Shown here: one piece after another, positions 18,933 through 39,927 of the stretch | Layout: every line of letters starts with the position of its first letter | How positions within the stretch are numbered: position 1 is the first letter of the stretch | DNA from: Fimbriiglobus ruber | GTDB taxonomy: Bacteria; Planctomycetota; Planctomycetia; Gemmatales; Gemmataceae | NCBI RefSeq assembly: GCF_002197845.1 | Contig: NZ_NIDE01000018.1 | Coordinates: 1 to 64,000, forward strand | Reading direction: 5' to 3' | DNA length: 64,000 nt | Made by a program: the position numbers and the translations under genes | Notes under the pieces: model-generated | What the model was told of the DNA's origin: nothing | What the model saw: only the letters and a program-made list of their open reading frames with translations | Databases searched by the model: none

Positions 18933-19463
18933 GAATACCTCGTCGATGGAAGACCGGGCTACTTTCCGACACGGCACCGCTTCGGGAGAAACCGCGAATC
19001 CGGCTCGTACCGATCTTCCAATGACTATTTGCCCGGCCAACTCACTCTGCTCCGTACGCTTGGTTGTTGTTGAATCCGAAAAATGGACCAACCCGGGCCG
19101 CGCCAGACGACGCACCGCGATACGGAAGAGGTTTGGAGTAAGGCATCTAATTACAGTACTATTCCGGATCGCCATCTTCTCCAAACGAATTTTTACCGCA
19201 AAAGCGCGAAAGTCCTACCACCCGGACTGCTGACCGCCTTGGTCCGTGTCTTGTGCAGACGCCCGCTCGGGCCGACAGGAAGCTTGAGCCGAATTTCCTG
19301 AAAGTCACTTTTTGTGGATTGGTCGAGAAAAGGTACTCCGGTTGTGCCGGACATGCCGAATAGACCGCTGATAACGCGTTGTTACGACTGGTCAAGCCTA
19401 TAGATGGAGCTGGAGATGCGGACACCGGGATCGCACCGCAACGACCAGCGCGAATTACCCCCC
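18933..19463. other. Intergenic stretch upstream of tadE
   Basis: I see no credible gene here. Reading frames that cross it are extensions of the TadE-like frame. It should contain the promoter of the tadE-cpaB unit. From about 19080 the base composition is less GC-rich. Confidence 0.4.
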
Positions 19464-20276
19464 TCAAAAGACCAGGGCTTTGTCGCGGTTATTGGTGTTC
19501 ATCAGTCGACGGAGCTTTTGACGGCGAATTTTGTCCTTGATGAAATGACGGTTCAGCAGGAGATGTCGGACCGTTTCGTCGAACCACTCGCCGCTCATTT
19601 GCCCACTCAGGATGTCACACCGGACTTTATCAGTTTTCCGCGCGTCGGCGTGTCGAATCATCCGCGCAGGTTACCCGCCGATTTCGATCCGCGACCCCCA
19701 CTACTTGGCATCGAAATCTGGCCGGACCGCGATGAGGAGGCGAGACCACTCGTCGAACCGACCGTGCCTTCCGGTCGTGTCGGTCGACTCGATCTGGTCG
19801 AGGAATTGGGGGATGACTGTGGGTTCGTTGGATTTGTCCGCCTGCGCCACCTGACCGAGGGCGCTCCTATCCGGACTCGGCCCGTGACACCTCGCGAGCG
19901 CGTAGTCGAGCGGGTGGCCGACGTCGTGGGAGCCCCGACGCGTCTTCCCGTCGATCGCGATCCGACGAGCGGACCCGCCCTTGCCTGTCTATTTGGCGTC
20001 CCCGATCCATTCCCGGGAGCACGTCCGAAAGACTTCGGGCTTGAAAGCGATCAGCCCTCGGCAGATGCAGTCACACGAGCGAATGTCGTTCCGGAGGGTG
20101 AGAAATCCCCGAAGCCAGGCCGCCCGCCGGCAGATAACCGCCGGACTACAGTGCCTACACATAAGGCTACAGACGGCGATGCCGGTCAACTGTTGCTTGT
20201 TGCGGACACGCCGAGGGTCGGACCGCGGCGCGTGGTGCGAGCCGATGGCGCCGACGTTCACCCGCGGATTGCGCAT
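19464..20276 (-). pseudogene. Decayed ISAs1-family transposase
   Basis: Read on the - strand in several frames. DPRRVRNKQQLTGIAVCSLM fits the family N-terminus. LRNDIRSCDCICRGLIAFKP and EVFRTCSREWIGDAK lead to a stop. Then ARRIAIDGKTRRGSHDVGHP matches the ISAs1 signature IDGKTLRGS, and ALGQVAQADKSNEPTVIPQF matches the KSNEI segment. VRHLLLNRHFIKDKIRRQKL fits the C-terminus. At least one in-frame stop and several frame changes make it non-functional. I find no clear terminal repeats. It lies opposite a spurious + strand extension of the secretin frame. Confidence 0.75.
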
Positions 20277-20432
20277 CCGGGGCGCCCGGGGTCCAGTGGC
20301 CGGAGGCGAAATTCGTCAGCCGTGGCTGCCGGTCGAAGCGTAACGGAACCAGGGCGTTCGAATAGTCTCCGCAAACTGCTGGTTGCCGTGCGCCGACGGT
20401 GGCTCCCGTCCGCGACACTGTCTGCAAGGTGG

Positions 20433-22529
20433 GTGGGATGGGGTTTCAAAGGATTGTTGTTGTTGCTCGTCGTGGGTCTCACCGCCGCCCGCGGGGGAAC
20501 GAATTCCGATCGGTTGCTTCAAGCGACTTCTCCACTGGCGAGCCCGCCGCCGGGCCGCCTCGCGCCCGTACCGCGCCAGGAACGCGGCAGTACAACCCCG
20601 CCAGCCGATCCGCCGGCTTATCTGCCACCGACACCGGCCGCACCGGGTCCGCGCCCGGACGGTGGTAATCCGACCGTGCCGGCCGACCCACCAGCGGGCC
20701 TGCCGATTCCTGTCGCACCGGGCCCGCGCCCGGACGGCGGCACCACGACCCCGCCAGCCGATCCGCCCGCGGGATTTTTGCTGGCGCCCAGGCAGATTCC
20801 GACCGGACGCGACCGCATTCGCTTGCCCCGGATGGGCACCGAACTCGGCGGGACGCCGATCCCGACCCCGGGCGACCTCGAAGAGCAAAATCTGTTCGTG
20901 GACCGCATCGTTGATCCTCGGCTGACCCTCGACCTGATCGAGGGGCGGAGTCGGTTGATCATGCTCAAGGCGATCCCGACCCAGACCCAAATTGCCGACG
21001 ACACCGTCGCCTCGTTCCGGCTCCTACAACCGAACGGGACGCAGTTGACGATCATTGGCAGAAAGCCGGGCTTGACGGTCCTGAACCTGTGGTTCGCGGA
21101 CCCAAAAAATAAAGGGAAAGAACGGATTCTCAGCTACATGGTCCGCGTCCTGCCCGACCCGGAGGCGAAGGAACGGGCCGAGAGCGTCTATAAAGCGCTG
21201 GAAATCGAAATTAATCGGGCGTTCCCCAACAGCCGCGTCCGCCTCAGCCTGGTCGGCGACAAGCTGATGGTCTCGGGGCAGGCCCACGACATTCAGGAGG
21301 CGACGCAGATTCTGCAGATCGCCCGGGCAAACGCGCCCGGCGGGGGCGGCACCGGCACAGGTACCGCCGGGGACGGCACGCGGCCCCCGGGCGGGCCCGC
21401 CGGCCGGGTGCCCCTATCTTCGCTCACCCCGACCACGAACCCACTCGACCCACTCCGACCGGACCCGACGCCCGGCCTGGAAGACTACCAGACGGCCGGC
21501 GGCCCCATGGTCATCAATCACCTGCGGGTTCCCGGCGAACAGCAGGTCATGATCCAGGTCGTGGTGGCCGAGGTCAACCGGGCGGCGGCCCGCAGCATCG
21601 GGCTGGACTTCAGCATCTTCAACAAGGCGGGCACCATGGTGTTCGGCCAGCTGACCGGCGGCCTGACCAGCGCGGCAAGCGCGACCGCCGCGAACACCCA
21701 GAACGCCGGAACGGGGGGAATCGCCAACCTCCCCGCAAACCTGAGCAACGGGCAAGTCTCGCTCGCCATCAACGCCCTGCGGACCCTCAACTACGCCCGG
21801 TCCCTGGCCCAACCCAACCTGACGGCCATGAACGGCCAGACGGCCACGTTCCTCGCTGGGGGGCAGTTCCCGGTCCCGGTCATCGGCGGGTTCGGGGCAA
21901 CGGCAAACGGAGCCGGACTCCAGGGTGTGCAGTTCGTCCCCTACGGGGTTCAGTTGTCGTTCACACCGATCGTGACCGACCGGGACCGCATCCGGCTGTC
22001 CCTGGGAGCAACGGTGAGTACGAGAGACAACTCGGGGGCGGCGACCGTGGGGGGGACCAACGTCCCTGCCCTGAACACCCGAACGTTCTCCACGACGGTC
22101 GAATTCCGCCCCGGGCAGACGCTCGCCGTCGCCGGGTTGATCCAGATGAACCTCGGGGCGACCGCGAACCGGGTGCCGCTCGTGGGCGACTTGCCGATCA
22201 TCGGCCGGGCCGCGTCGTTCCAGCAGATCACCGCCGGGGAACAAGAGCTGGTCGTCCTGATCACCCCGGTGCTGGTCCACCCGATGGACCCGTACGAGGT
22301 GCCGCCGGCGTTGCCGGGGTCAGACATCACGGAGCCCGGCGACATCGAGTTCTACCTGCTCGGCCGGCTCGAAGGCCGGCGGACGTACGACTACCGCAGC
22401 ACCGTCCGGACCGACATCCACCGGATGCTCCGGTACCGGCGGTGCGAAGAGGCGTACATCGTCGGCCCGACCGGCCACTCGGAGCCCCCGGCGGCGAGTC
22501 CCCCCTATCCTGGAACCGGTAAGCGATGA
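20433..22529 (+). CDS. cpaC: Type II/IV secretin of the Tad pilus (CpaC/RcpA)
   Basis: About 698 residues from GTG 20433, where a hydrophobic signal segment begins (VGWGFKGLLLLLVVGLTAAR); the start is approximate. The frame is open back to 19404, but that part overlies a dead transposase. After a Pro-rich linker, residues about 165-222 form the pilus N-terminal domain (SRLIMLKAIPTQTQIADDTV). A BON-like domain lies near 253-300 (NSRVRLSLVGDKLMVSGQAH). The secretin core lies near 370-620 (VMIQVVVAEVNRAAARSIGL, RSLAQPNLTAMNGQTATFLA, GGQFPVPV, RVPLVGDLPIIG, LVVLITPVLVHPM). It forms the outer-membrane pore for the pilus. Its stop is followed closely by the lipoprotein gene. Confidence 0.9.
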   Translation: MGWGFKGLLLLLVVGLTAARGGTNSDRLLQATSPLASPPPGRLAPVPRQERGSTTPPADPPAYLPPTPAAPGPRPDGGNPTVPADPPAGLPIPVAPGPRPDGGTTTPPADPPAGFLLAPRQIPTGRDRIRLPRMGTELGGTPIPTPGDLEEQNLFVDRIVDPRLTLDLIEGRSRLIMLKAIPTQTQIADDTVASFRLLQPNGTQLTIIGRKPGLTVLNLWFADPKNKGKERILSYMVRVLPDPEAKERAESVYKALEIEINRAFPNSRVRLSLVGDKLMVSGQAHDIQEATQILQIARANAPGGGGTGTGTAGDGTRPPGGPAGRVPLSSLTPTTNPLDPLRPDPTPGLEDYQTAGGPMVINHLRVPGEQQVMIQVVVAEVNRAAARSIGLDFSIFNKAGTMVFGQLTGGLTSAASATAANTQNAGTGGIANLPANLSNGQVSLAINALRTLNYARSLAQPNLTAMNGQTATFLAGGQFPVPVIGGFGATANGAGLQGVQFVPYGVQLSFTPIVTDRDRIRLSLGATVSTRDNSGAATVGGTNVPALNTRTFSTTVEFRPGQTLAVAGLIQMNLGATANRVPLVGDLPIIGRAASFQQITAGEQELVVLITPVLVHPMDPYEVPPALPGSDITEPGDIEFYLLGRLEGRRTYDYRSTVRTDIHRMLRYRRCEEAYIVGPTGHSEPPAASPPYPGTGKR

Positions 22530-24414: not shown

Positions 24415-24538
24415 TTCCCATACTCGATGCCGGTAGAATCCACGGCGGGGCCGCTTGTCACATCTCTCTCTGTTGGTACAAACATCTCTTGAGTGACGCC
24501 GCATGCGAACTCGGCCGATCCGTTCGAGTTGACCCGTC

Positions 24539-26200
24539 ATGTTTACCGCCCCGATGTCAAACCAACCGGCTGCCCCGGTGATCGCCGCCGGTTGGTGGGG
24601 TGGGGTGGTAGTGGCCTCCGGGCTCATCCTCGCCTTATTCGCCGATAGTCTGTCAAATCTCGTCCGCCTCTGGAATAGTGACCCGGGCTACTCCCACGGC
24701 TACCTCGTGTTGCCGGTCAGTCTCGCGCTGGCTTCTTCCACCTTCCGGCGGTCCGGGCCGCCGGGCCGGGGCGAACTCCTTGTCGGACTGGCCGGCATCG
24801 TCTTCGGCGTCGCCTGCCAGTTGACCGCGACCGTTTTCCGCTGGCCGCCGTTGAGTTTCGTGGCGATGGTCGCAGTTGTCCGCGGTGTCCTCGTCTGTGC
24901 CGGCGGGCAGGCCTGGGCCGCCGCGTTTACCTTCCCTCTTCTGTTTTTGTTCTTCATGTTCCCCCTGCCGGCCACCTGGACCGGGTACGCGGCTCTTTGG
25001 CTGCAAGACATCGTCACCCGGCTCGCCGAGACGGCGATCGAACTGTTCGCGGTCTGCCACCGGGTCGGGTACACCATCCACATCGCCGGCGTGGATACTC
25101 CCCTGGTCGTCGCCGAGGGGTGTAGCGGGCTCGGGCAGGTCGTCGCATTCGTCGCGTTCGCCACGCTCCTCGGCGAATTGACTCGTCGACCCGGCTGGTA
25201 TTGCTTCATTCTCGTACTCGCCGCCGTCCCAGTGGCGGTCGTCGCGAACACCTTACGCGTCGTCGCGATCGCCCTGGCCGTCAAGTCGTTCGGGGCGGGT
25301 TGGCTGGACGGGGCACTCCACGACGCCCCGGCGACGTTCAGTTATCCGGCCGGCATTGCGATTTTTCTTCTGGTCGATCGCGTCTTGTCAGCAGTCGTCG
25401 CTCGGCCGGCGGAGGCCACGACCGTCGCGAATCCGCCCCCAACTACACCAGAACCCGAGGGTGTTGGTCGAACCATAGCGGCCCGCCGACCGGTGGCCGT
25501 CGCGGCCGTGGTACTGGCAGTCGCGGTCGTCACTCAGGTCGCGCTCGCCGAACACGTGCGGGAGGCCAGGGACTTAAGCTTCCCGTCGCAATCCGGATCA
25601 CTGGATCACCTTCCACTGGTAGTAGCCGATCCGGATTCCGGCCGGCCGGCCTGGTCGGGGACGGACTTGCCCAGCGCCCGGGACGCGGTCCGGTCCCAAC
25701 TCCCGTTCCAGGCGGACGATCTGCTCGTCCGCGGTTACCGCCACGTCAGCGGGGCCGAGGCCCAGCTGTACGTGGTCCACTCGCGCACCGGACAGGACCG
25801 CAAACACCACCCGGAAATCTGTGTCCGGGACGTAGGCGGTGTGCCCGAGGATCTCGGATTCCGCGACCAGGTGCCGCTTTCCGCGGATCGCGCCGGCCGC
25901 GCCCAGCGGTTTCTTTTTCGGCCCGCGTCTGGCCGGCCGACCGTCGTGTACTATTGGCACTACACCGGCACGCCGGTCCCGGATCCGTCCCGGACCTTCC
26001 TGCAAACCCTCCACCTGCGGCTCGGCACCGCCGCCCCGAGTGTGACGGTGCAACTATCCGTCGGCACCGACGAGAAAGCCGTCCTCGATTCGGTCGCGAG
26101 GGTCCTGTTGCCCGCACTCGACCTGGCGGCCCGGCGGGATGTCCTCCCGCCGGGGGCGGAGACCGGCTGCGACCGCATCCCGATCGGGCTCGCCCGGTAA
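24539..26200 (+). CDS. Exosortase with fused EpsI-like C-terminal domain (XrtU-like)
   Basis: A polytopic membrane protein of 553 residues. The first 290 residues hold about eight helices and the exosortase catalytic residues: Cys195 in VVAEGCSGLGQ, Arg240 in ANTLRVVAIAL and His261 in ALHDAPATFSYPAGI. The part after about residue 320 starts with another helix (PVAVAAVVLAVAVVTQVALA). It continues with an EpsI/DUF3485-like domain (AQLYVVHSRTGQDRKHHPEI, CVRDVG). This fusion fits the planctomycete exosortase U type as I remember it. Exosortases process proteins with short C-terminal sorting tails; none is visible in this window. It precedes the TPR gene by fewer than 30 bases, so the two are probably co-transcribed. 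Confidence 0.85.
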   Translation: MFTAPMSNQPAAPVIAAGWWGGVVVASGLILALFADSLSNLVRLWNSDPGYSHGYLVLPVSLALASSTFRRSGPPGRGELLVGLAGIVFGVACQLTATVFRWPPLSFVAMVAVVRGVLVCAGGQAWAAAFTFPLLFLFFMFPLPATWTGYAALWLQDIVTRLAETAIELFAVCHRVGYTIHIAGVDTPLVVAEGCSGLGQVVAFVAFATLLGELTRRPGWYCFILVLAAVPVAVVANTLRVVAIALAVKSFGAGWLDGALHDAPATFSYPAGIAIFLLVDRVLSAVVARPAEATTVANPPPTTPEPEGVGRTIAARRPVAVAAVVLAVAVVTQVALAEHVREARDLSFPSQSGSLDHLPLVVADPDSGRPAWSGTDLPSARDAVRSQLPFQADDLLVRGYRHVSGAEAQLYVVHSRTGQDRKHHPEICVRDVGGVPEDLGFRDQVPLSADRAGRAQRFLFRPASGRPTVVYYWHYTGTPVPDPSRTFLQTLHLRLGTAAPSVTVQLSVGTDEKAVLDSVARVLLPALDLAARRDVLPPGAETGCDRIPIGLAR

Positions 26201-26227
26201 TGACTTTAGACACCCCGAGTGACCGAC

Positions 26228-29200
26228 ATGCGCCTGCGCCAAAACCGGGTTTACCGGTCGATTCTGTTGGCCCTGACCGTCGTCGGTCTGGCGGGGGCCG
26301 GCTACGTCGTGTACGGGACGTTCCTGGCGCCGGCCGCCCCCGACCGGCAGCTCAAGGCCGCCGAGGCCGCGTACGCCCGGGGCGTGGCCGTGTATCAGGC
26401 CCAGAACTGGGGGGAGGCCGTCACCCGGTTCGACGAGGCCCGGTTGCTGGCCGACAAGGGGCGGGGGCTGCTGGAGGAGCAGTCCCGCGCCGGGCGACTC
26501 TCGCCGGACGAGGTGAAAGCTCTGCTGGGCCGACTCGCGTGGATCAAGGCCCGGGCCGTCCGCGACCGGGCGTACGCCCGGTCGCGTGTCAATGGAACGC
26601 CCATCGGCGACGTGCCCGACACACAGTACGGGGAATCGTACCGCGGCGTGATGACCATCCCGGACGATGGCGACCGTGGGGAAGCGTTGGCCGCACTCCG
26701 GATCGCCGCCCTGTACCTTCGTTCGGACCAAGACGTGCTCAAGGACGCCCTGCGGGCCGAACTCGTTCGCCAGCCGATCGACTGGGGCACGGCCGAGCCG
26801 CTGCTCCGGGCCGCGATCGAGCTGAACCCGAAAGACAGCCGGGCTCAGTACTTCCTCGCCCGCTTCGAGTTCGACCAGCCGGTGGAAGGCTCGGGGATTC
26901 CGGTCCCGTTCGACAAAAAGGACACCGCCCGGGTCGAAAAGTCCCGGACGCATTTGGACGCCGCCCGGGAGAGTAAGGCACCGCACTGGCGGGTCGTCGG
27001 GCTGGAGACGGAGATCCGATCGTGGGAAGTGAGGACCGCGGCCGCCCGCCGGGTCAAGGCCGCCGCCGCCGCGACCAATGAACAGGCCCTTGACCGATTC
27101 CTCTTCGATCCCGCCGACGGCGCCATCGGCCAGATCGCCCGCAAAGAACACCTGACGGGTCTCGGGCGGGCCGACGTGGCGGGATTGGCGAATGTTTTGT
27201 CGGCCGGCCTCGACCGGGGCGTGGTCCACGCCCGCGCACTGGACGGCCGCCCGGACGAGGTTCGGGCGGTCGTCCGCGCCGCCCTCGATCTGGCCGACGC
27301 CACGGCCGGTGCCGCCGCCAACCCGCTCCTCTCGGATCTGGCTGTCGCGGCAGTCGATCTCATGTGGAAGGCACAAGCCCTACTGGCCGTCGCCGACGGG
27401 GCCGGCTGGCGGGACGCGGTGGCGGCGTTGGACGCCGTCGTGGCGAAGGCCGGCGACGCCGTCCGGGCCAACCCGCAGGTTCGACTACAGCTCGCGCAGA
27501 TCACCCACCGGGATTCGCTCATCGCGCTCCGCTCGAACGACACGACGCTGGCTAAGAACCTCGCGTCTCGGGCCATCAAGCAGGCCGAGGACGCACTGGC
27601 GAGCGCCGAGAAGGTCAACCCGGCCGCCCCGCTCGTTGACGAGTACCGGCTGATGTTGGCCGAATGGAAACTCCTCGGCGGTACCCGGATCGAGGAGGTC
27701 CGGCCGTACCTCGCCCGCGCCCGCGCGTCGGCCGGCCCGCGGACCAAGTTGATGGTCCAGTTCCTCGACGCGGTGGTGGCCGAGCGGCAGGGCCGGTTCG
27801 TCGCGGCCCGGGCGATCCTTCGCCCGGTCGCGGCCGCCCGGAATTACCCCGATCTGGCCTTCCGGGCAAACCTGTTGACCGCAACCCTTGCGATCACGTC
27901 CGGCGACCCGAGCGCGGCTCTGGCGGCCCTCCGGGAAGTGGAGCCGGTGTACCAGAAGCTGGACGACCTGCTCCCCACGGAGCGGGCGTGGGCTGCCGAG
28001 TACATCCGCGGGCGGGACGAAGTGATCGCCCTCCAGGTCACCGCGACCCTGGAACTCGGCCTCCAGTCGGTCGCCCGGTTCCGCCGCGACAACCCCGGCC
28101 GGCCGGTCCCGGCAGACCTGCTCACCCCTCACGAAACGACGACAGAGGGGCTGATGAAGAAAATCCGGCCGCCCAGCCCCGCAGACCGAACGGCCCGGCT
28201 GGCCGTTGCCGGGTATCTCGCCCTGACCGGCCGGCGGAAGGCGTCGGAGACCCGCTTGACCGACCTGGCCACCGACTACCCGGCGAGCCTGGAAGTCCTC
28301 CGCGCCCGGACGGCTCTCCTGGCCGTCCCCGAGAACCGGACGGCGACGGCAGCCGATCCGAACGCGGTCGCCGCCGGGGACGTCCTCATCCAGAAATTCA
28401 TCAAGGACTACCCGGGCGACCGGCCGGCCAAGCTGTACAAGGCCGAATGGCTGGTCAGGACCGGACGGTCCGACCAGGCGATCGAGTATTTGAAAGACCC
28501 GGGCACGTTCCTCGGCGGCCGGGACGACGCGGTGGACCGCGTGCTGGCCGCCGCGCTCTACCAGGCGGGCCTCAAGGACGAAGCCCGGGAAATCCTCGGC
28601 CGGTTGCCCGACGACCCGGCGGTCACGGCCATCCTGATCCGGTCGGCGGGGAGCCTGGAAGTCGGCCAAGCCCAGCTGAAGGAAGCGCTGAGCCGGTTCG
28701 AGAACAAGGGACTGTTTCAGGTTTACCAGGGGTCCGTCCTGTTAGGCCAGCGGAAGTACCCGGAGGCGGCCGCGGAGTTCTCCGCCGCGTGCGCCGTGAG
28801 CCAGGTCCGGCCGGCCGCCCGCGTCGGGCTGACCTGGGCTCTGATGGGTTACCTGGCCGCGGACCCAACGAGTGCCCGCGAGCTCGCCATTAAATTGGCC
28901 GGGGAGATGACGGACGAGCCGTCGGTCTATCTCGTCGCTGCCCTCGCCGCCCTCCGCCTGGACGACATCGGCACGGTGTCCGACAGCTGGGACCAAGTCC
29001 GGTCGATGTACGCGGCGGTGAACAAGTGGGAGGCGGTCGCGGTCGGGGCCGGGTTGCCGCGGGCCGACGCGGCGGTCGCCCGGGCCCAGTTCAAGCTCCT
29101 GGCCGGCGACCCGGTCGCGGCCCGCCGGGACGCGGTCGCCAGCCTGAGCCAGTACCCCGAGCACACCGCGACGCTGATCCTGTTGGCCGACCTGTTCCTC

Positions 29201-30277
29201 AGCCCGCCGGGGGATTTGACGCGGGTGCGGGATTATTACCGGGAGGCCGTCCGGCTGAACCCGGCCGACCCCCGCCTGCCGTACCTCGACGCCCGCATCC
29301 GGCAGGCCGACGGCGACTGGTCCGGGGCGGCCGCCGTGTACGACCGGCTGATCGCCGCGGCCCCGCGGAACCCGACCCCCTACCCGCCATTAGTTGCCGC
29401 GCTGGTCAACGCCGGGAAGAAAGACGAGGTTCTGAAGCGGACCCGGGATTGGCACGCCCGGTTGCCGGACGATGAGCGGGCCACGGTCACCCTGATCGAA
29501 CTGTTGGCTGGTTCGGGAGCCGGGGTGGAAGCCGACGAACTCGCCAACGAGTTCGTCGCCCACGCGCAGGCCGAGGCCGGCCGGCGGGCCGGTTTGGCCG
29601 CCCCACCGAGCGCTCTCCCGAGTGCACCGGGGGATGCCGTGGCGGCGGCCGAGAAGGCCCGGCTGTCCGCGCTTCTGGATGTCGCCGCAGCGTTTTCCCG
29701 GGCGAACGCCTTCGACGCCGCCACTGCCCGGGCGAAGGAAGTTCTGAAGACCCGTCCGGCCGACGAGCGGGCGCGGATGACCCTCGGCGGGATCGCGGTC
29801 GCCCGGGGGGAGTGGGACGCTGCCGTGGCCACATACAAAGACGTCCTCAAGGACAACCCCCGGCAGTTCGTCGCCGGGAACAACCTCGCGTGGATCCTGG
29901 CGGAGAAGAAGAACGAGCCGGCCGCCGCGCTCGAACTGGTCGAACGCGTTCGCCTGGGGCCGACGGGGACGCGGCCGATCAGTCCCGAGCGGCTCCCGGC
30001 CGACTTCCTCGACACGCTCGGGGTGGTGTATCACAAACTGAATCAACCCGACCGGTATCGGGAAATGCAGGCGGTGTTCGAGGCGGCCGCCCGGCGCTAC
30101 CCGGCCGACCCGCGAGTTCTGCTCCACCTGGGAGTGGCCCAGGTGGCGACAGGGGATCGAGCCCGGGGGCTGGCTACCCTCGACGCTGCGGTCCGGCTGG
30201 CGAAAACCCGCAACGGGCTCAAGGACCGGCAAAATAAAGATGTGATCGCTGCTGCCCAGACGTACCTCAAGAGCTGA
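26228..30277 (+). CDS. Very long TPR-repeat protein linked to the exosortase
   Basis: About 1349 residues from ATG 26228 (GTG 26219 is possible). One N-terminal transmembrane helix (SILLALTVVGLAGAGYVVYG) is followed by many degenerate tetratricopeptide repeats along the whole length, for example AYARGVAVYQAQNWGEAVTR, YREAVRLNPADPRLPYLDAR and WDAAVATYKDVLKDNPRQFV. No catalytic motif is visible. Its place directly after the exosortase recalls the PrsT-type TPR proteins of PEP-CTERM loci, which suggests a periplasmic scaffold for surface protein or polysaccharide export. That role is inferred from context. The reading frame looks intact. Confidence 0.8.
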   Translation: MRLRQNRVYRSILLALTVVGLAGAGYVVYGTFLAPAAPDRQLKAAEAAYARGVAVYQAQNWGEAVTRFDEARLLADKGRGLLEEQSRAGRLSPDEVKALLGRLAWIKARAVRDRAYARSRVNGTPIGDVPDTQYGESYRGVMTIPDDGDRGEALAALRIAALYLRSDQDVLKDALRAELVRQPIDWGTAEPLLRAAIELNPKDSRAQYFLARFEFDQPVEGSGIPVPFDKKDTARVEKSRTHLDAARESKAPHWRVVGLETEIRSWEVRTAAARRVKAAAAATNEQALDRFLFDPADGAIGQIARKEHLTGLGRADVAGLANVLSAGLDRGVVHARALDGRPDEVRAVVRAALDLADATAGAAANPLLSDLAVAAVDLMWKAQALLAVADGAGWRDAVAALDAVVAKAGDAVRANPQVRLQLAQITHRDSLIALRSNDTTLAKNLASRAIKQAEDALASAEKVNPAAPLVDEYRLMLAEWKLLGGTRIEEVRPYLARARASAGPRTKLMVQFLDAVVAERQGRFVAARAILRPVAAARNYPDLAFRANLLTATLAITSGDPSAALAALREVEPVYQKLDDLLPTERAWAAEYIRGRDEVIALQVTATLELGLQSVARFRRDNPGRPVPADLLTPHETTTEGLMKKIRPPSPADRTARLAVAGYLALTGRRKASETRLTDLATDYPASLEVLRARTALLAVPENRTATAADPNAVAAGDVLIQKFIKDYPGDRPAKLYKAEWLVRTGRSDQAIEYLKDPGTFLGGRDDAVDRVLAAALYQAGLKDEAREILGRLPDDPAVTAILIRSAGSLEVGQAQLKEALSRFENKGLFQVYQGSVLLGQRKYPEAAAEFSAACAVSQVRPAARVGLTWALMGYLAADPTSARELAIKLAGEMTDEPSVYLVAALAALRLDDIGTVSDSWDQVRSMYAAVNKWEAVAVGAGLPRADAAVARAQFKLLAGDPVAARRDAVASLSQYPEHTATLILLADLFLSPPGDLTRVRDYYREAVRLNPADPRLPYLDARIRQADGDWSGAAAVYDRLIAAAPRNPTPYPPLVAALVNAGKKDEVLKRTRDWHARLPDDERATVTLIELLAGSGAGVEADELANEFVAHAQAEAGRRAGLAAPPSALPSAPGDAVAAAEKARLSALLDVAAAFSRANAFDAATARAKEVLKTRPADERARMTLGGIAVARGEWDAAVATYKDVLKDNPRQFVAGNNLAWILAEKKNEPAAALELVERVRLGPTGTRPISPERLPADFLDTLGVVYHKLNQPDRYREMQAVFEAAARRYPADPRVLLHLGVAQVATGDRARGLATLDAAVRLAKTRNGLKDRQNKDVIAAAQTYLKS

Positions 30278-30496: not shown

Positions 30497-31884
30497 ATGA
30501 CGATGTTAGCGACCGTCGGTGCCGCGTTACAACGACTCCTCGGACCCCTCGCCGAGGACGCCGCCCGGGACACCGGTGTGATCGTCCGCCAGCGGAAGTT
30601 TACCCCCTGTCCTTGGCCCGAACATTTGTCCTCGGGTTCTTACAGAAGCCGAGCGCGTCCGATGAGGAACTCGCCCAACTCGCCACCCAAGCCGGAGCCC
30701 CGGTCACCCCTCAGGCCATCGACCAGCGCCACACCCCGCGACTCGTCCAGTTCCTCGAAACCCTCTTCCGCAAGAGCACGACGGTGGTCGTCGGATCGAC
30801 CCGCGCCCTGGCCCCCATCCTGGAACGGTTTCCCACGGTGACCATCCTGGACAGTTCGACGATTACCCTGCCGGACGAACTGGGGGACCGGTTCGCGGGG
30901 TGCGGGGGGAGTTACGGGCGCGGGGCCGCGGCTCTCAAACTTCAGACCGAGTTGGACCTCCGGAGTGGGGCTCTATCGGCCATCACCGTCGAGTCCGGCC
31001 GGATCCCGGACGGGGCGTCGGCCCGGCAACACGTGATCCCTCCGGCCGGGGGATTACGGATCACCGACCTCGGATATTATTCCCTGGCCGTGTTCGCCCC
31101 GATCGCCGCCGGGCGGGCGTATTTCCTGTCCCGGTTGGGATTTGGGACGGGCGTCCGGGTGGCTTCGGGCGGCCCGACCGTGGACCTCCTGCCGTGGCTG
31201 GCGGGTCAACCGGGTCCGTATGTCGACGCCCCGGTCTGGTTGGGCGAGAAGAGACTCGGGTGTCGCCTGCTGGCGTGGCGGTTGCCCGACGAACCGGCCA
31301 ACCGCCGCCGCCAGAAGTTGCGGGCGGCGGCCCGCGCGAAGGGGGCTCCGGAGCCGTCCGCGGCCCGACTCGCGTGGTGCGAGTGGACGCTCCTGGTGAC
31401 GAACGTGCCGGGGGAACTCCTGACCCCACCGGAAGCCGTCGTCCTGTACCGGGCCCGGTGGCAGGTGGAACTCCTGTTCAAGCGGTGGAAATCGCAGGAC
31501 TTGGTGGCCGTGCTGAGCGGTGCGACGGTCGTCCGCCAGATGGTCCGGGTGTGGTCGCGGTTACTGGCCGCGGTCGTCCAACATTGGTTGGTGGTGGCCA
31601 CCGCGTGGGGGGACGCGACCCGGAGTTGGGTGAAGGTGAGCGAGGCGGTGCGGGCATTCGTGGGCCGTCTGGTGGGAACCCTGGACGACCCCGTCGGATT
31701 GGCCCGGGTTCTGTCCGACCTCGGTCAGGTGGTCGGGAAGACGTGCCGCCGAAACAAACGTCGGAAACCGGGGACGGCAGAACTCCTGAACGATGTGAGC
31801 CTCTTGGACTTCAGCTTATTCTCGGACTCGCCTGAAGTGACACAAGTCGGCCTTGAGCAACCAGGCCTGGATAGCGGAGGATAG
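30497..31884 (+). pseudogene. IS4-family transposase with a frame break
   Basis: The start MTMLATVGAALQRLLGPLAE and ARDTGVIVRQRKFTP are in frame 2. The rest, LSLARTFVLGFLQKPSASDE onward, is in frame 1. A five-C run at 30603-30607 would have to be six C to join them, so one base appears lost. The DDE core is otherwise complete: ILDSSTITLPDEL (first Asp), YYSLAVFAPIAAGRAYFLSR and LYRARWQVELLFKRWKSQ (YREK-like signature with Glu). The last residues after FSLFSDSPE differ from a usual family end and probably come from the IS630 insertion. It is either inactive or dependent on frameshifting. Confidence 0.75.
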
Positions 31885-31917
31885 ATCCTTCACCGATCCG
31901 TCTGCGGGAGGGCAAGG

Positions 31918-32986
31918 ATGCGTCCCCAATATTCGTTTCCCGAACCCGTGGTCCAAGCGATCGCGGACGCGCGCTATCGGCACCCGGACCCGCGTGTCCA
32001 AGAGCGGATGGAGATTCTCTGGCTCAAGACCCGGAACGTGACGCACAGTCGGATCGCGGAGTTGGCCAACGTGTCGCGCTCCACGGTGCAGCGGACCCTG
32101 CGGATCTATGCGGCGAAGGGTCTGGATGGGGTCCGATCGTTCGGCTGGAAGGGCCAACCCAGTGCGCTGACACCGCATCACGGGACGATCGAAGACGCGT
32201 TTCGCCGGCACCCGCCGCACACGGCCCACGAGGCGGCGCGGCGGATCGAGGACCTGACGGGCGTCCGACGCAAGGCGTCGCGGGTGCGCCAGTTCTTGAA
32301 AGAGGATCTGGGGATGAAATGCCTGAAGGTGGCACCCATCCCGGTGCCGCCCAAGAAAACGGTCGACGAACACGCCCGCACGCAGGCGGATTTTTTAAAA
32401 GACGGAACTGGAACCGAAGTTGGCGGAAGCCCGCGACGGTAAGCGGACGGTGTACTTCGTGGACGCGTCGCACTTCGTCTTGGCGTCGTTCCTGGGGTGG
32501 GTGTGGTGCTTCGTCCGGTTACATGTCCGGGCCGCGTCGGGACGGCAGAGGTACAACGTGCTGGGTGCGCTGAACGCGGTCACGCACGAGCTGGTGACAG
32601 AAATCAACACGACGTACATCACGGCCACCTCGGTGTGTGCGTTGCTCCGCAAGATCGCGGCCCTCGGTGGGTCATTGCCGATCACGCTGGTACTCGACAA
32701 CGCCCGCTACCAGCGGTGCGCGCTGGTGGAGCACACGGCCAAGGCACTCGGGATCGAGTTGTTGTTCCTGCCGTCGTATTCGCCGAACCTGAACTTGATC
32801 GAGCGACTCTGGAAGTTCGTGAAGAAGGAGGCGTTGAACAGCCGCCACCATCAGGACTTCAAGAAGTTCCAGGAGGCCATCGACCATTGCTTGGCGGATC
32901 TGCCGACGAAACACCGAGAGAAACTGGCGACCCTGATGACCCACAAATTCCAGACGTGGGACAATGTGTCACTCCTGGACGCGTAA
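31918..32986 (+). pseudogene. IS630-family transposase split by a frame change
   Basis: The upstream frame (ATG 31918, GGGAGGGCAAGG before it) encodes the helix-turn-helix half (LKTRNVTHSRIAELANVSRS, TVQRTLRIYAAKGLDGVRSF). It stops at 32442. The downstream frame encodes the DDE half: YFVDASHFV (first Asp), ITLVLDNARYQRC (second Asp) and LLFLPSYSPNLNLIERLWKF (Glu). They join smoothly as QADFLK/TELEPKLAEARDGKRT if one A is removed from TTTTTTAAAAG at 32391-32401. That run is also a plausible slippage site, and IS630 elements are known to use frameshifting, so it may be active rather than dead. Confidence 0.8.
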
Positions 32987-33048
32987 AGTATAACTTGATG
33001 CGTATGGGGGTACGCTTCGCGAACCCCGGGCAAATGGGTAGTACGAAT

Positions 33049-34599
33049 CCAGCCCTTTCAACATGGCCCCTTGTTGCGAAATTCCTTCAACAAGCGGGCG
33101 GTTGAGTAATGTTTGTGTCTTTTGTTGTACACCGGTTTCTTTTTCGGTGGCTTTTTCGGTCCACGTTTGCTCCGGGTTAAGGCCGGGAGGTTGACATGCT
33201 TGGCGAGCGATCGCAGCAGCCTCGCCAGGGTCGACGGCGACAAACGGCTCCAACCCAACCACGGGTCGGGCGGTAGGTACTTCATCAGTGTGCGATAATC
33301 ATGGGCGCTTTCGTCGGCCAAGTAGTGGCCTGAGATTTCCGCCTCCGCCTCGACGCCATGCACCGAACGAATCGCGGAACGGACCACGGCCACGGCATTC
33401 CCGGCCAGCAATGCCATGGCGAAGCCAAACAATGCGGCCCGCGGTTGGCCCCGCCCTGGCTGTTCGCAGTTCAACTCTTGGGTGAGATACTGAAAATGGT
33501 TTTCGATAGTCCAGCGCAACAAGTAGAGTTCGGCAATCCGCTCGGCCGACACGTCGTCTGGCAAGTGGGTCAACACCGCCAGGGTGCGGTCGCCGTTACG
33601 GGTTTTGGCGAACAAGCGAATTTCGATCCGCCTCAGGGACAGGACGTCCCCAGTGTCCAAGTCGGTGGCCCGCACGCGTTGTTCGTAGATCGTCCCGGTG
33701 GCGGTTTTCCCGCAGTACTTCAGCCGGCTGACGGGCTCGCACGGCAGGCTCCGGCGGTGTTGCCGAACGAGTACAAAAGCCTTTCGGCCGGGGACACCGA
33801 ACACGAACCGCACCGTACAAAAATTGCGGTCGGCAACGAACACATCGTTGGCCTGCACGCGGGGCAGCAGTTGCGTCAGCAGAGCACGCTCCTGAGGATA
33901 CGCGTCTTCGCACAGCACCAAATCGGTGGCGAGCCCCACCCCGGGTTCGTAGACCACCCGCGACTTGCCCGGCAAACAGGCATTGAGCCATTGCCGCAAC
34001 GGTGTCAACCGATGGTGGGTGCCCGCCAACACATTGCCGTCGAGGACGCGCATGCGATAACCCGGCAGCGGTTCGCTGCGGGCGTTCGGCTTCGCATCCA
34101 GCACTTGGCCGCACCGCTGGCCGCTGTACCGCACCACCGCCTCGCTGACCGCCGGTTGCAGTCGGCCCAACTTGCCATACACCGCCTGGAACGACGTCGT
34201 GATCGTGGGTTGCGTCTCGGTCGGATCGGCTTGGTAGGCCGCCTGGACCGAGGCCCGCATGCCGGCCGCCACTTGGATCAGCAACCCCACCAATGCCGAG
34301 AGCGTCAATTCGCGGGTATACTGATCGGGTGCGTGTTCCTGGAACAACTGTTCCAGGGTGGGCTCGTCCAGCATCCATTCCCGCGTACCTCGCACCATGA
34401 CTCCCAACGGCACCACCAGGCCATGCGGCACCAGGGTGATGGGGATTTCCGCATAGGCGGGGCGCGCCAGCAGTTGTTCGAGCGGGTCGGGTTTCCGCGG
34501 CTTCGGTGGGAGACGCATCCTTGCCTCTCGCGAAAAAGCCGCATGTAATCGATTACGCTCCCGGGTGATAGGTCAAAGAGTTCATGTTGAAAGGGCTGG
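33049..34599 (-). mobile_element. IS4-family insertion sequence, complete, with 10-bp target duplication
   Basis: The 1551-bp element has perfect 17-bp inverted ends, CCAGCCCTTTCAACATG at 33049-33065 and its complement at 34583-34599. The direct repeat TAGTACGAAT flanks it at 33039-33048 and 34600-34609. One intact transposase gene fills the - strand. It inserted three bases beyond the right end of the element ending at 33035. An 11-bp duplication with one base less at the left end is an equivalent reading. Confidence 0.93.
33058..34518 (-). CDS. IS4-family transposase (DDE)
   Basis: A protein of 486 residues, intact. It starts MRLPPKPRKPDPLEQLLARP at ATG 34518, with AGAGGCAAGG upstream on the - strand. 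The DDE core has RVLDGNVLAGTHHRLTPLRQ (first Asp), VFVADRNFCTVRFV (second Asp) and LYLLRWTIENHFQYLTQELN (Y-x-x-R-W-x-I-E signature). The C-terminus is strongly basic (RSKRGPKKPPKKKPVYNKRH). It fills nearly the whole element and ends nine bases inside the left boundary. Confidence 0.95.
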   Translation of the reverse strand: MRLPPKPRKPDPLEQLLARPAYAEIPITLVPHGLVVPLGVMVRGTREWMLDEPTLEQLFQEHAPDQYTRELTLSALVGLLIQVAAGMRASVQAAYQADPTETQPTITTSFQAVYGKLGRLQPAVSEAVVRYSGQRCGQVLDAKPNARSEPLPGYRMRVLDGNVLAGTHHRLTPLRQWLNACLPGKSRVVYEPGVGLATDLVLCEDAYPQERALLTQLLPRVQANDVFVADRNFCTVRFVFGVPGRKAFVLVRQHRRSLPCEPVSRLKYCGKTATGTIYEQRVRATDLDTGDVLSLRRIEIRLFAKTRNGDRTLAVLTHLPDDVSAERIAELYLLRWTIENHFQYLTQELNCEQPGRGQPRAALFGFAMALLAGNAVAVVRSAIRSVHGVEAEAEISGHYLADESAHDYRTLMKYLPPDPWLGWSRLSPSTLARLLRSLAKHVNLPALTRSKRGPKKPPKKKPVYNKRHKHYSTARLLKEFRNKGPC

Positions 34600-34664: not shown

Positions 34665-35633
34665 CTACTTCGTGCGATTTTTGGGGTTGAGCGTTTTGCC
34701 GATCAGGTTGTTCGGGTCGGCCTTCGGCAGCGCCTCGCGGGCCTTCGCCCGGCGGGCGTTCAGCTCGAAGTAGACCGGCGCGACGAGGACGACGGCCGCC
34801 GGAATCCACAGGAATAGCATGGTCGGGAAGAGCATCCAGAACGTCGCCCGCTGGGCTCGGGCGTCGGCCCGCTGGCGGGCGTTGACGCGGACGCTGGCGG
34901 CGTACCCGGTCAGCGCGGCCGACACGTCGTTGCCCAACAGCTGGGACTGCGTCAGGATGACCGCCAGGTTACGGACCGAGACCGACTGCGACCGGTCGGC
35001 CCACCGCTCGAACGCGACGGCCAGGTTCAACATCTCGGCCTGTCGGAGCACCAGACCGAGTTCCTCGGTCATCCGCGGGAACGGCCCGCGGAGCTGCTCG
35101 GTGACCCGCTCCAGCGACCGGATTAACCCCTGCCCGGCGAGCAGGGCGATGGCCAACATGTCGGCGAACACCGGCAGCCCCCGCTCAATTTCCCCGTCCC
35201 GGGCGTGAGCGGCCAGGGCGAGGTAGACGCGGGGGACCGAATACCCGACGAGGGCCAGGACGAGTCCCCCGCCGGCGGCATACGGAATCCAACCGGGGGA
35301 GACGAGCATCGCGACGCCAGCCGCGACGAACACCGGGGCGAGCGTTAATAGGGCCCGGATCGCCCGGTATTGCACCAGCGCGGTCCGACTGTAATAGCCC
35401 GCCCGAAGGAGAATGGGGGCGATTTCTAGCTCGTCGCGCGCGGCGCCGGGGAGCCCCCCGGCCAGGACGTCGGTCATGTCACCTAGAACGGGTGGCGGGT
35501 CGGCGTCGCCCGCCGCCACGCCGCCCGGGTCGAGCCGGCGAACGGACGGGCGGCGGGCGAGCGACAAAAGGACCGCGCAGCAGGCCACCGCCACGCCACC
35601 CGCGACCAGACCGAACCAGACCCACTCGCCCAT
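34665..35633 (-). CDS. tadC: Tad pilus inner-membrane platform protein TadC
   Basis: A protein of 322 residues of the T2SF/GspF family. It has a first helix near the N-terminus, two helices around 95-135 (IRALLTLAPVFVAAGVAMLV), the T2SF cytoplasmic helical domain (about 155-270, with LPVFADMLAIALLAGQGLIR), and a last helix (MLFPTMLFLWIPAAVVLVAP). It is the last gene of the flp-tad run, 64 bases after tadB. TadB and TadC form the membrane base driven by the TadA ATPase. An IS element inserted just beyond its 3' end, so the gene itself is untouched. Confidence 0.88.
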   Translation of the reverse strand: MGEWVWFGLVAGGVAVACCAVLLSLARRPSVRRLDPGGVAAGDADPPPVLGDMTDVLAGGLPGAARDELEIAPILLRAGYYSRTALVQYRAIRALLTLAPVFVAAGVAMLVSPGWIPYAAGGGLVLALVGYSVPRVYLALAAHARDGEIERGLPVFADMLAIALLAGQGLIRSLERVTEQLRGPFPRMTEELGLVLRQAEMLNLAVAFERWADRSQSVSVRNLAVILTQSQLLGNDVSAALTGYAASVRVNARQRADARAQRATFWMLFPTMLFLWIPAAVVLVAPVYFELNARRAKAREALPKADPNNLIGKTLNPKNRTK

Positions 35634-35697
35634 CTCAGGATCACCCCCCGTTAACCGCGTCGGCGCGGCCCGCCAGGTCGCGAACAGTCGTTCCGGC

Positions 35698-36627
35698 TCA
35701 GTAATCGACCCGCAGGATGTACCACAAACAGACGGCCCCGATCATTTCCAGCACCGCACACCCGGCCAGCAGCGCCCACCCGCCCGGGGCGGCCAGGAAG
35801 GTCGCCACGTGTTCGGGCTCGGCCAGCAGGTAGACCAGCAGGATGATCGGTCCGATCGCCCCGATCGCGATGGCCACGATCCGGGCCTGGGCGGTCGCCG
35901 CGAAAAACTGGCCGCGGAACTGGTTCCGATCTCTAACGCTTTCCGAGAGTCGTTCGAGCAGGGCGACCAGGTCTCCGCCGACCTGCGCGTAAAGTCCGGC
36001 GGTCGAGACGAGCAGGTCGAAGTCGAGGAGGCAGATTCGTCGGGCCGTCGACCGCAGGGCGGCCACCGGCGACATCCCGAGCCGGATCAGACCGGCGCAG
36101 TAGGCGAATTCATTGGCTAACGGCTGCGGCCCCCGGGCGGCGTAGAACTCGATCGCCTGGTCGAGCGTCTGGCCGGCCCGGACCGACCCGGCGAGCGTCT
36201 GGAACGCGTCCGGGATCAATTCCTGGAGCCGCCAACGGAACTGGCGGGCCCGAAATACGATCACCGCCAACGGAACCCCCAGGCCCAGCGTGATCCCCAA
36301 CCCGGTCAGGCCGATGCTGTCCTTCCACAGGTACAGACCGCCCCCCAGAACCACGACCGCGAGGAGCATCACGGCCGCCGCCCCGGCTGGCGAGGCGTCC
36401 AGATCGGCCAAGTGAACGGCGGTCGAAAACCACTGATCGAACCGGGACACGCGACCCGTCGGGACGGCATCCGGGGTCGCCGTCAACCGGGTTCCCTCGT
36501 CCGACACGGCCAGCCGTCGCTCGATCGCGGAGCGCCGCCGCTCGCCCGCGGCGCGGGCGCCCAGCCCGACCGCCAGCACGAGTGCGACGGCCAAAACCGC
36601 CAATCCGAGTTCGAGCCCGCCTATCAT
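35698..36627 (-). CDS. tadB: Tad pilus inner-membrane platform protein TadB
   Basis: A protein of 309 residues of the T2SF family. The N-terminal helix (LELGLAVLAVALVLAVGLGA) is followed by a pair of helices near 85-125. The T2SF domain has LIPDAFQTLAGSVRAGQTLD near 138-157. A C-terminal helix pair follows (IVAIAIGAIGPIILLVYLLA). It starts 12 bases after the tadA stop, so it is very likely co-translated with tadA. It works with TadC as the platform for pilin polymerisation. Confidence 0.88.
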   Translation of the reverse strand: MIGGLELGLAVLAVALVLAVGLGARAAGERRRSAIERRLAVSDEGTRLTATPDAVPTGRVSRFDQWFSTAVHLADLDASPAGAAAVMLLAVVVLGGGLYLWKDSIGLTGLGITLGLGVPLAVIVFRARQFRWRLQELIPDAFQTLAGSVRAGQTLDQAIEFYAARGPQPLANEFAYCAGLIRLGMSPVAALRSTARRICLLDFDLLVSTAGLYAQVGGDLVALLERLSESVRDRNQFRGQFFAATAQARIVAIAIGAIGPIILLVYLLAEPEHVATFLAAPGGWALLAGCAVLEMIGAVCLWYILRVDY

Positions 36628-36639
36628 CTGCCGCCCCCG

Positions 36640-37956
36640 TTAGTCGTCGAAAACGGTTCCCTCGGTGAACGTCTCCTCCGGCAGCTCGACCCCCATCGCG
36701 GTCAGCTTTTCCAGTACCCGCGGCCGGTACCCGGTGGAATAGAACTCGCCGAACGCCACCCCGTCCCGGACGCCCAACTGGCGGTACCCGAACACATCCT
36801 TCAAAGCCACCCGGCCGTCTCGCACGCCCCGCACTTCGGACACGCGGATCATCCGTCGCTTGCCACCTGTGAGCCGGGACAACTGGACGACGAGGGTAAT
36901 GGCGGTGGCGATGTAGTACCGGATGACCGGGACCGGCAACTCGTACCCGGCCATCATCACCATCATTTCGAGCCGGGCCAGGGCGTCGCGGGTGTCGTTG
37001 GCGTGGATGGTCGTCAGCGAGCCCTCGTGGCCCGTGTTCATCGCCTGGAGCATGTCCAGCGCCTCGCCCCCGCGGACTTCCCCGACGATGATCCGATCGG
37101 GCCGCATCCGCAGCGCGTTGCGCACCAGTTCCCGCTGCCGGACCTCACCTGTCCCTTCGACGCTCGCCGTCCGGGTTTCGAGGGCCACAACGTGCGGCTG
37201 GCGGAGTTTCAGCTCGGCCGAGTCCTCGATCGTGATCAGTCGCTCGTGCGCCGGGATGTACTGCGAGAGGGCGTTGAGCAGGGTCGTCTTACCACTCCCG
37301 GTCCCGCCGGACACCAGGATGCTTACCCGAGCCTCGACCGCCGCCCGGAGGAAGTCCAGGAATTCGGTCGGCATGGTGCGGTTGGCCAGCAGGTCGTCCC
37401 CCCCGAGGCGGATCCCGAACCGGCGGATCGAGAGGACCGGGCCGGTCAGGGCCAGCGGCGGGATGATCGCGTTCACCCGGGAGCCGTCCGCCAGGCGGGC
37501 GTCGACCATCGGGGACGACTCATCGGCCCGCCGGCCGACCCGGGCCGCGATGCGCTGGACGAGCTGGAGCAGGTGGGCGTCGTCGTGGAACCGGACGGAC
37601 GTGAGTTCGAGGCGCCCGCCCCGCTCGATGTAGACGGAGTGCGGGCCGTTCACGAGGACGTCGCTCACCTCGGGGTCGGCCATCAGTTTGTCGAGCGGGC
37701 CGAGGCCGAAGACCTCGGACATGACCTCCTCGGTCAATTGTTCCCGTTCAACCTCGTTTAGTAATTCCGGGGCGGAGGCGCACAACTGGCTCGCCATCGC
37801 CCGGACTTCCCGCTTCAGCCGGACCGGGTCCCACCGGTTCAGCTTCGACAGGTCAAGGGTCTCGACGACCCGCCTGTGGGTTTCGGTCTTGAGCTGATGG
37901 TAGCGTGCCGCAAAGGTGTTGGCGGTCTGGGCGGCAACGGGGCGGTCGTCGGGCAT
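36640..37956 (-). CDS. tadA: Tad pilus assembly ATPase TadA/CpaF
   Basis: A protein of 438 residues, a type II/IV secretion ATPase. The N-terminal domain (EVFGLGPLDKLMADPEVSDV near 81-100) is followed by the RecA-like core with Walker A GGTGSGKT at about 217-224, an Asp box (TIEDSAELKLRQPHVVALET), a Walker B region (RIIVGEVRGGEALDM near 288-302) and the His box (GHEGSLTTIHANDTRDALAR). All motifs are intact and the length is typical. It powers pilus extension from the cytoplasm. The gene lies 31 bases after tadZ. Confidence 0.95.
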   Translation of the reverse strand: MPDDRPVAAQTANTFAARYHQLKTETHRRVVETLDLSKLNRWDPVRLKREVRAMASQLCASAPELLNEVEREQLTEEVMSEVFGLGPLDKLMADPEVSDVLVNGPHSVYIERGGRLELTSVRFHDDAHLLQLVQRIAARVGRRADESSPMVDARLADGSRVNAIIPPLALTGPVLSIRRFGIRLGGDDLLANRTMPTEFLDFLRAAVEARVSILVSGGTGSGKTTLLNALSQYIPAHERLITIEDSAELKLRQPHVVALETRTASVEGTGEVRQRELVRNALRMRPDRIIVGEVRGGEALDMLQAMNTGHEGSLTTIHANDTRDALARLEMMVMMAGYELPVPVIRYYIATAITLVVQLSRLTGGKRRMIRVSEVRGVRDGRVALKDVFGYRQLGVRDGVAFGEFYSTGYRPRVLEKLTAMGVELPEETFTEGTVFDD

Positions 37957-37987
37957 GGGGCGGGTCCGGCAGGCGGTTCGTCGGGGT

Positions 37988-39085: not shown

Positions 39086-39284
39086 CTACATCGGCCCCGC
39101 GAGGAGCCCTCTCCGCTGTGTCTTCAAGGCGTTTGGCTGTTGATAGTTGACCACTCCAGCCAACGAGCCGCGGCGCCTCGGGGTATTTTTTGCATTTATT
39201 GCGCTGAAACCCCTGTTTTAGAACCAGTAGGTCGCCGCGACTGTCGAGGCGGTCGGGAGGCGTAAAGTATTTCCTGCCGAACGC

Positions 39285-39893: not shown

Positions 39894-39927
39894 TTTCGGT
39901 CTCGGATCGTGACAGGTCTACCAATAG

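What the first reader, a model, noticed from the sequence alone, without database searches (positions are those of the whole stretch)
24539..30277. Exosortase-EpsI fusion with a 1349-residue TPR partner but no visible substrate
The catalytic Cys, Arg and His are intact, so the enzyme should be active. No protein that ends in this window has a PEP-CTERM-like tail; the giant protein's end lies outside. If that end carries a sorting tail, the giant protein would be the natural substrate.
Basis: inference. Interest (0 to 1): 0.55.

Follow-up and report, generated by a model that had tools for sequence, protein, structure and literature searches.

The report
Exosortase cassette with displaced PEP-CTERM client
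This is a bacterial protein-sorting enzyme and its large repeat-protein partner, which in relatives sit beside the small surface protein they probably process; here that protein's place is empty and the likeliest replacement lies just beyond the window, so the giant gene is probably not the client.

Summary
An exosortase (24539-26200, Cys195/Arg240/His261 intact) with a diverged EpsI-like C-terminal domain is followed 18 bases later by a ~1350-residue TPR protein with an N-terminal membrane anchor, and no gene ending in the window has a PEP-CTERM tail. The proposed substrate fails: the giant gene ends at 66313 with a mildly hydrophobic stretch but no sorting motif and no Lys/Arg in its last 100 residues. 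The very next gene (66388-67107) is a PEP-CTERM protein inside the same rearranged Tad-pilus cluster.

Of 95 genomes of the family, 12 have this exosortase, and the same 12 have the TPR protein beside it. In 11 of 13 orthologous loci a PEP-CTERM gene lies beside the exosortase (in G073 broken over two frames); one contig is cut there, and the window is the only exception. Among 20 other exosortase loci of the family, 1 (3 by a loose scan) has such a neighbour. This looks like a Gemmataceae cassette of substrate, exosortase-EpsI and TPR protein that here lacks its own substrate gene, probably served by the 66388 protein instead. It is a new variant of a known kind. Activity, client and the TPR role are inferred.

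The parts
24539..26200 (+). Exosortase fused to a diverged EpsI-like domain (553 aa). Residues ~13-286: helical exosortase core with Cys195, Arg240, His261; ~310-345: linker helix; ~350-540: EpsI-like domain, likely periplasmic
   Evidence: PF09721 and TIGR02602 over cut-off; invariant residues in 12 orthologues; EpsI models match 7 of 12 orthologues; AlphaFold model mean pLDDT 80.9
26219..30277 (+). TPR partner (1349-1352 aa), 18 bases after the exosortase; N-terminal basic residues and one hydrophobic segment, so the repeats probably face the periplasm
   Evidence: TPR Pfam hits; PrsT model 108.6 bits, below its cut-off 312.2; the same 12 of 95 genomes carry exosortase and TPR orthologues
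24415..24538 (.). 124-base gap between the TadD-like gene and the exosortase: the place where relatives G023, G021 and G072 carry the PEP-CTERM substrate gene
   Evidence: Gene order in relatives; no PEP-CTERM frame here
41306..64000 (+). Giant gene (8335 aa from ATG 41306, 8373 aa from TTG 41192); it continues past the window to 66313 on the same contig and ends without a sorting tail. The proposed client, the PEP-CTERM gene (239 aa), follows at 66388-67107 + in continued numbering, outside the window
   Evidence: Giant. PEP-CTERM gene: TIGR02595 27.7 bits on the genome, cut-off 16; 24.8 bits on the protein, with NF038127 44 bits
23548..24414 (+). TadD-like TPR protein, upstream neighbour of the exosortase
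   Evidence: TPR Pfam hits; orthologues beside the Tad secretin in G023, G021, G072, G034
19404..22529 (+). Tad-type secretin (gene start uncertain)
   Evidence: PF00263 E 6.8e-37
34665..40298 (-). Further Tad genes: two T2SSF proteins (34665-35633, 35698-36627), T2SSE ATPase (36640-37956), TadZ-like (37988-38935), prepilin peptidase (39285-39761), Flp pilin (39978-40298; under its Pfam cut-off)
   Evidence: Pfam hits
30613..34518 (.). Transposase genes directly after the TPR gene (30613-31884 +, 32450-32986 +, 33058-34518 -), between two parts of the Tad cluster
   Evidence: PF01609 and PF13358 hits

Best explanation
It is a Gemmataceae exosortase cassette of three normally adjacent genes: a small secreted PEP-CTERM protein, an exosortase fused to EpsI, and a ~1350-residue membrane-anchored, probably periplasmic TPR protein. 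Proposed working: the substrate crosses the inner membrane by its signal peptide and stops on its C-terminal helix and Arg/Lys cluster, leaving the PEP motif at the periplasmic face; Cys195, helped by Arg240 and His261, cleaves there through a thioester and hands the protein to an unknown acceptor; the fused EpsI domain and the TPR protein, on the same side of the membrane, present the substrate or acceptor. In the window genome the adjacent substrate gene is missing and the likeliest client is the PEP-CTERM protein at 66388-67107, inside the same rearranged Tad cluster. Shown: intact triad, conserved exosortase-TPR pairing, conserved PEP-CTERM neighbour in relatives, its absence here, and the PEP-CTERM gene past the giant. 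Inferred: activity, client identity, acceptor, periplasmic role of EpsI and TPR, and that the substrate gene was lost rather than never there.
For: Exosortase orthologues score 242 bits or more in 12 of 95 family genomes, the next listed exosortase 83.6; TPR matches at E <= 1e-15 in 13 of 95, namely those 12 plus G033. The two genes are adjacent in all 12; in G034 the TPR gene is in pieces on two contigs. A PEP-CTERM gene lies beside the exosortase in 11 of 13 loci: same strand, immediately upstream in G023, G072, G021, G044, G027, G038, G039, G034 and G073 (there cut by the contig end, its body and tail in two different frames), divergent upstream in G043 and L095 (two genes, the nearer one recognised by eye only). 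G036 is cut there; the window is the sole exception. With 1.5-kb flanks and one scan: 8 of 12 orthologues against 1 of 20 other exosortase loci by eye (Fisher p 3.6e-4) or 3 of 20 by the bare scan (p 0.006). Of 8 substrates compared, 7 are joined by alignments over 100 residues at E <= 1e-5 (10 of 28 pairs; E for a 17-sequence set), and 7 of 8 match TIGR02595 at E <= 0.1. The 11 exosortase rows in the tree form one group, support 98/95, apart from 19 others. Of 9 PEP-CTERM-like tails in the window genome, 66388 scores best with a profile of 11 cassette tails: 27.0 bits, next 21.6.
Against: The 66388 protein is not homologous to the relatives' substrates outside the tail, and it is also the best TIGR02595 hit of the genome, so its first rank is weak evidence. 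The genome has two further exosortases on contig C4, beside polysaccharide-type genes by my reading, and about eight other PEP-CTERM-like proteins, so any enzyme may serve any client. The 12 cassette genomes have 2 to 25 PEP-CTERM matches each at E <= 0.05, so the system is not dedicated in the strict sense. Substrate G027 is linked to the others only weakly. Gene calls came from my own codon-usage script. Similar divergence of exosortase and TPR (Spearman 0.92 over 45 pairs of 10 genomes) may just follow the species tree.
Confidence: 0.68

Rival explanations
1. The exosortase here has no special client: it is one of three exosortases that together process all PEP-CTERM proteins of the genome, and the TPR protein is a general PrsT-like adaptor.
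For: Three exosortases and about nine PEP-CTERM-like proteins, eight of them on other contigs than this exosortase; the PrsT model matches 10 of 10 TPR orthologues at E <= 0.001; adjacency to a substrate is missing in the window.
Against: In 11 of 13 loci a PEP-CTERM gene sits beside this exosortase, more often than beside other exosortases. TPR matches at E <= 1e-15 appear only in genomes with this exosortase, plus G033.
Confidence: 0.22
2. The window copy is a decaying remnant: without its substrate gene, and with transposons behind it, the exosortase-TPR pair no longer has a job.
For: Substrate gene missing at its usual place; transposases directly downstream; the cluster is rearranged relative to G023.
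Against: Both long frames are open, the catalytic and EpsI signature residues are kept, and a PEP-CTERM gene lies in the same cluster.
Confidence: 0.08
3. One reading: the giant protein is the natural substrate through a C-terminal sorting tail.
For: It is a large gene in the same region and its end has a mildly hydrophobic stretch.
Against: Its end has no PEP-like motif and no Lys/Arg in the last 100 residues; TIGR02595 and PF07589 do not match its end, but do match the next gene.
Confidence: 0.02

Closest known systems
XrtA/PEP-CTERM system with PrsK-PrsR-PrsT (PMC1569441; passages read)
   Same: Exosortase, PEP-CTERM clients and a TPR protein as co-distributed parts; that paper suggests TPR domains as adaptors for protein modification.
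   Different: Scores are below the XrtA (102.9 of 208) and PrsT (108.6 of 312.2) cut-offs. PrsT is described as having a lipoprotein signal; the window TPR protein has no cysteine in its first 45 residues, though four relatives (G073, G023, G021, G044) do have one in the hydrophobic segment. About 1350 aa against a 899-position PrsT model; the exosortase is adjacent to TPR and, in relatives, to the substrate.
Exosortases with a C-terminal EpsI region: XrtD (TIGR04152), XrtW (NF038142), TIGR02914
   Same: Fusion layout; the XrtD model spans residues 45-474 of the window protein. PMC1569441 already reports EpsI-like regions fused to or adjacent to EpsH-type proteins and says EpsI has no known function.
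   Different: Far below the XrtD (155.7 of 400) and XrtW (145.7 of 425) cut-offs.
Dedicated sorting systems, as defined for rhombosortase/GlyGly-CTERM (PMC3237569; passages read)
   Same: Sorting enzyme encoded next to its presumed target, which can reveal extra components.
   Different: Cassette genomes hold further PEP-CTERM proteins, the window genome two further exosortases; the presumed target is separated from the enzyme in the window genome.

Membership tests
Exosortase (EpsH family) | Match to PF09721 / TIGR02602 over curated cut-off | tested here: met
   137.7 of 25.7 bits; 108.8 of 105.55 bits
Exosortase (EpsH family) | Catalytic Cys, Arg, His | tested here: met
   C195, R240, H261 invariant in 12 rows
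Exosortase (EpsH family) | Cleavage and transfer of PEP-CTERM proteins | not testable with these tools
   Needs an experiment
EpsI domain (TIGR02914 / PF11984) | Profile match over cut-off | tested here: inconclusive
   Window domain 14.6 of 42.8 bits, no PF11984 match; 7 of 12 orthologues match each model at E <= 0.01
XrtD / XrtW / XrtA subfamilies | Curated cut-off of the subfamily model | tested here: not met
   155.7 of 400, 145.7 of 425, 102.9 of 208 bits
PrsT (TIGR02917) | Curated cut-off | tested here: not met
   108.6 of 312.2 bits
PEP-CTERM protein (gene at 66388) | Motif, TM helix and basic tail; TIGR02595 cut-off 16 | tested here: met
   27.7 bits on the genome, 24.8 on the protein; PF07589 22.5 on the genome but 20.5 of 20.7 on the whole protein
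Strictly dedicated sorting system | Single target in the genome | tested here: not met
   2 to 25 PEP-CTERM matches at E <= 0.05 in each of the 12 cassette genomes

The most novel reading that the evidence does not exclude
The EpsI domain, said in 2006 to have no known function, may be a Mog1/PsbP-like chaperone domain that cradles the hydrophobic tail helix of the PEP-CTERM precursor, while the ~1350-residue TPR protein is a dedicated periplasmic receptor that brings the client or acceptor to the exosortase. Basis: by my recollection about 17 of the top 24 rows of the structural comparison, from some nine distinct proteins (TiME, PknH ectodomain, Apa, SciW, PA94, Mog1, EagT6, Tsi3, PsbP; Z 5.8 to 7.5), share one fold superfamily, and the titles of SciW and EagT6 entries show them bound to effector transmembrane or N-terminal regions. 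Z under 8 can be a common arrangement only, so this is a lead.
Probability: 0.13. Interest if true: 0.65.

Novelty: new variant of a known kind. Interest (0 to 1): 0.42.

Why it matters
Exosortases often have many candidate substrates, and pairs of enzyme and client are hard to assign. A recurring three-gene cassette gives a defined enzyme-client-partner set, makes the roles of EpsI and of a TPR partner testable one at a time, and ties exosortase sorting to Tad-pilus loci in some of these genomes. The window suggests how a client can be displaced while enzyme and partner stay.

Tried and rejected
Giant gene as substrate: rejected on its C-terminus. Homologue of the relatives' substrate elsewhere in the genome: profile A2 found only the 66388 tail, E 0.035. 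Fold search of the substrate model (mean pLDDT 68.5) gave no match at E <= 0.001. Foldseek on the exosortase model gave nothing at E <= 0.001; the second look suggested a fold for the EpsI part only, and no exosortase structure is among its rows. PDB sequence searches gave nothing for the 15608 membrane protein and one match of E 0.49 for A1. Cassette beyond the family: 392 genomes drawn from the phylum gave only the window genome for exosortase and TPR profiles at strict E-values, but in the rows shown just 3 and 2 candidates per genome were scored, so absence is not proven. PEP-CTERM list of the window genome: L011 (C5:36954, below cut-off, no PEP motif) and the weaker rows were dropped before counting nine. 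Tree: the partial rows G034 and G036 were left out, and L052 was lost by my motif filter. Papers: searches on exosortase with Planctomycetes, EpsI, TPR, dedicated, Tad pili, Gemmata and tetratricopeptide listed no title or abstract start describing this cassette; only PMC1569441, PMC3237569 and PMC12188702 were opened, in passages; Haft 2012 (10.1128/JB.06026-11) is not held.
Full report
Observation. The window is bases 1-64000 of a 170,901-base contig (C18) of a 12.36-Mb genome. The exosortase passes PF09721 and TIGR02602; Cys195, Arg240 and His261 are invariant across 12 orthologues, as are residues of an R-x-H-H-P-x-x-C block in the C-terminal part. The EpsI label is fair but rests on relatives: the window domain alone is below the curated cut-off (14.6 of 42.8 bits) and unmatched by PF11984, while 7 of 12 orthologues match PF11984 and 7 of 12 match TIGR02914 at E <= 0.01.

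The giant gene. Read past 64 kb, its frame ends at 66313 (8373 aa from TTG 41192, 8335 from ATG 41306). The last 100 residues have no Lys or Arg, the last 60 no P-E/A/S-P motif; a stretch of mean hydropathy 1.61 is present, close to the 1.67 of the 66388 tail. Lacking motif and basic tail, it is not a sorting substrate of a known kind. The next gene, 66388-67107, is a PEP-CTERM protein with a signal-peptide-like N-terminus (TIGR02595 27.7 bits on the genome, cut-off 16). With TIGR02595 six places in the genome pass the cut-off, with PF07589 five; counting weaker ones with a visible motif-helix-basic tail I list nine proteins.

Conservation. In 95 genomes of the family, 12 have an exosortase orthologue (best pieces 263.8 bits or more; a second piece of the G021 gene 242.2; next exosortase 83.6), and the same 12 have the TPR protein, G033 having a weaker TPR match only. 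Full-length TPR orthologues run from 1347 to 1387 residues where the start is clear (G036 1328 and G027 1314 have uncertain starts). In nine of the ten TPR rows compared, basic residues and then a hydrophobic segment open the protein; G027's called start misses it. The exosortases form one group (98/95) of 11 rows against 19 others in an unrooted tree; their nearest rows are L053, L061 and L065, on long branches.

The neighbour. In 11 of 13 loci (12 genomes plus L095) a PEP-CTERM gene lies beside the exosortase on its upstream side: 9 on the same strand and 2 divergent. Details that weaken single cases: G073 is cut by the contig end, with body and tail in two frames (broken gene or assembly error); in L095 the nearer of two such genes has a tail recognised by eye only. 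G036 cannot be judged because its contig begins inside the exosortase. In the window, TadD (23548-24414) is followed after 124 bases by the exosortase, with no PEP-CTERM frame between. As a control, 20 other exosortase loci, namely two of the window genome and the 18 that one search returned as loci L050-L067, were scanned with the same flanks of up to 1.5 kb: 3 pass the loose scan, and by eye only L066 is a real PEP-CTERM tail; 8 of 12 orthologues pass the same scan (Fisher p 0.006 and 3.6e-4). Of eight substrates compared, seven are joined by alignments of over 100 residues at E <= 1e-5 (10 of 28 pairs); G027 is not. The window genome shows no match to their bodies.

The cluster. In G023, G021 and G072 the cassette follows the Tad genes: Tad assembly genes on the minus strand, then secretin, a small conserved protein, TadD, PEP-CTERM gene, exosortase and TPR on the plus strand. 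In the window, Tad genes lie on both sides of transposase genes (30613-34518), and the giant gene, the PEP-CTERM gene and a cytochrome c554-type gene lie between Flp and a TadG-like gene at 68928-70049. The PEP-CTERM gene at 66388 therefore sits within the rearranged cluster. In G027, G038, G039, G043 and L095 no Tad gene was recognised in the stretch held, so the Tad link is not general.

Which client. A profile of 11 cassette tails (G073's not included) ranks 66388 first among nine tails of the genome, 27.0 against 21.6 bits for the next. It is also the best hit of the genome with TIGR02595, though third with PF07589, so the ranking is only suggestive. Two other exosortases on contig C4 could process the same proteins.

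Mechanism. Cleavage at the PEP motif by a cysteine enzyme with a catalytic triad, and transfer to an unknown acceptor, is the model of PMC1569441 (passages). Here EpsI is part of the enzyme and the TPR protein is a constant neighbour, so both are best seen as parts of the sorting machine; this is inference. The predicted structure (mean pLDDT 80.9) gives the EpsI part a compact mixed alpha/beta domain; its top structural rows suggest a Mog1/PsbP-like fold, Z 5.8-7.5, which is not conclusive (the superfamily name and its members are recalled).

Novelty. Exosortase-EpsI fusions and TPR proteins in PEP-CTERM systems (PMC1569441) and adjacent target-enzyme pairs (PMC3237569) are known separately. 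I found no description of this combination in the paper searches listed under Tried and rejected. I rate it a new variant of a known kind.

Noticed in passing
15608-17230: Multi-TM protein without a Pfam match that recurs near the cassette in G023, G044, G043 and L095 (next to the TPR gene in G043 and L095).
   Followed up: partly
22526-23512: Small gene without a family match, conserved between the Tad secretin and TadD in G023, G072, G021 and G034.
   Followed up: no
41306-66313: Giant ORF of more than 8300 residues with an N-terminal STEQLEDRLAP motif, between the Flp pilin gene and a PEP-CTERM gene; weak LktA_tand_53 repeat hits.
   Followed up: partly
11587-15447: 1286-aa FG-GAP and Calx-beta protein with an N-terminal LDELEPR motif.
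   Followed up: no
G000:C14:1226284 and 1227524 (loci L007 and L006): Two neighbouring, about 62% identical PEP-CTERM proteins with nearly the same tail, on another contig than any of the three exosortases.
   Followed up: no
L026 (G000:C1:1534098-1534406): The only PF11984 (EpsI-type) match over cut-off in the window genome, away from all three exosortases.
   Followed up: no
L084 (G033:C378): A TPR protein (847 aa) related to the cassette TPR in a genome without the cassette exosortase, in what looks like a polysaccharide locus.
   Followed up: no
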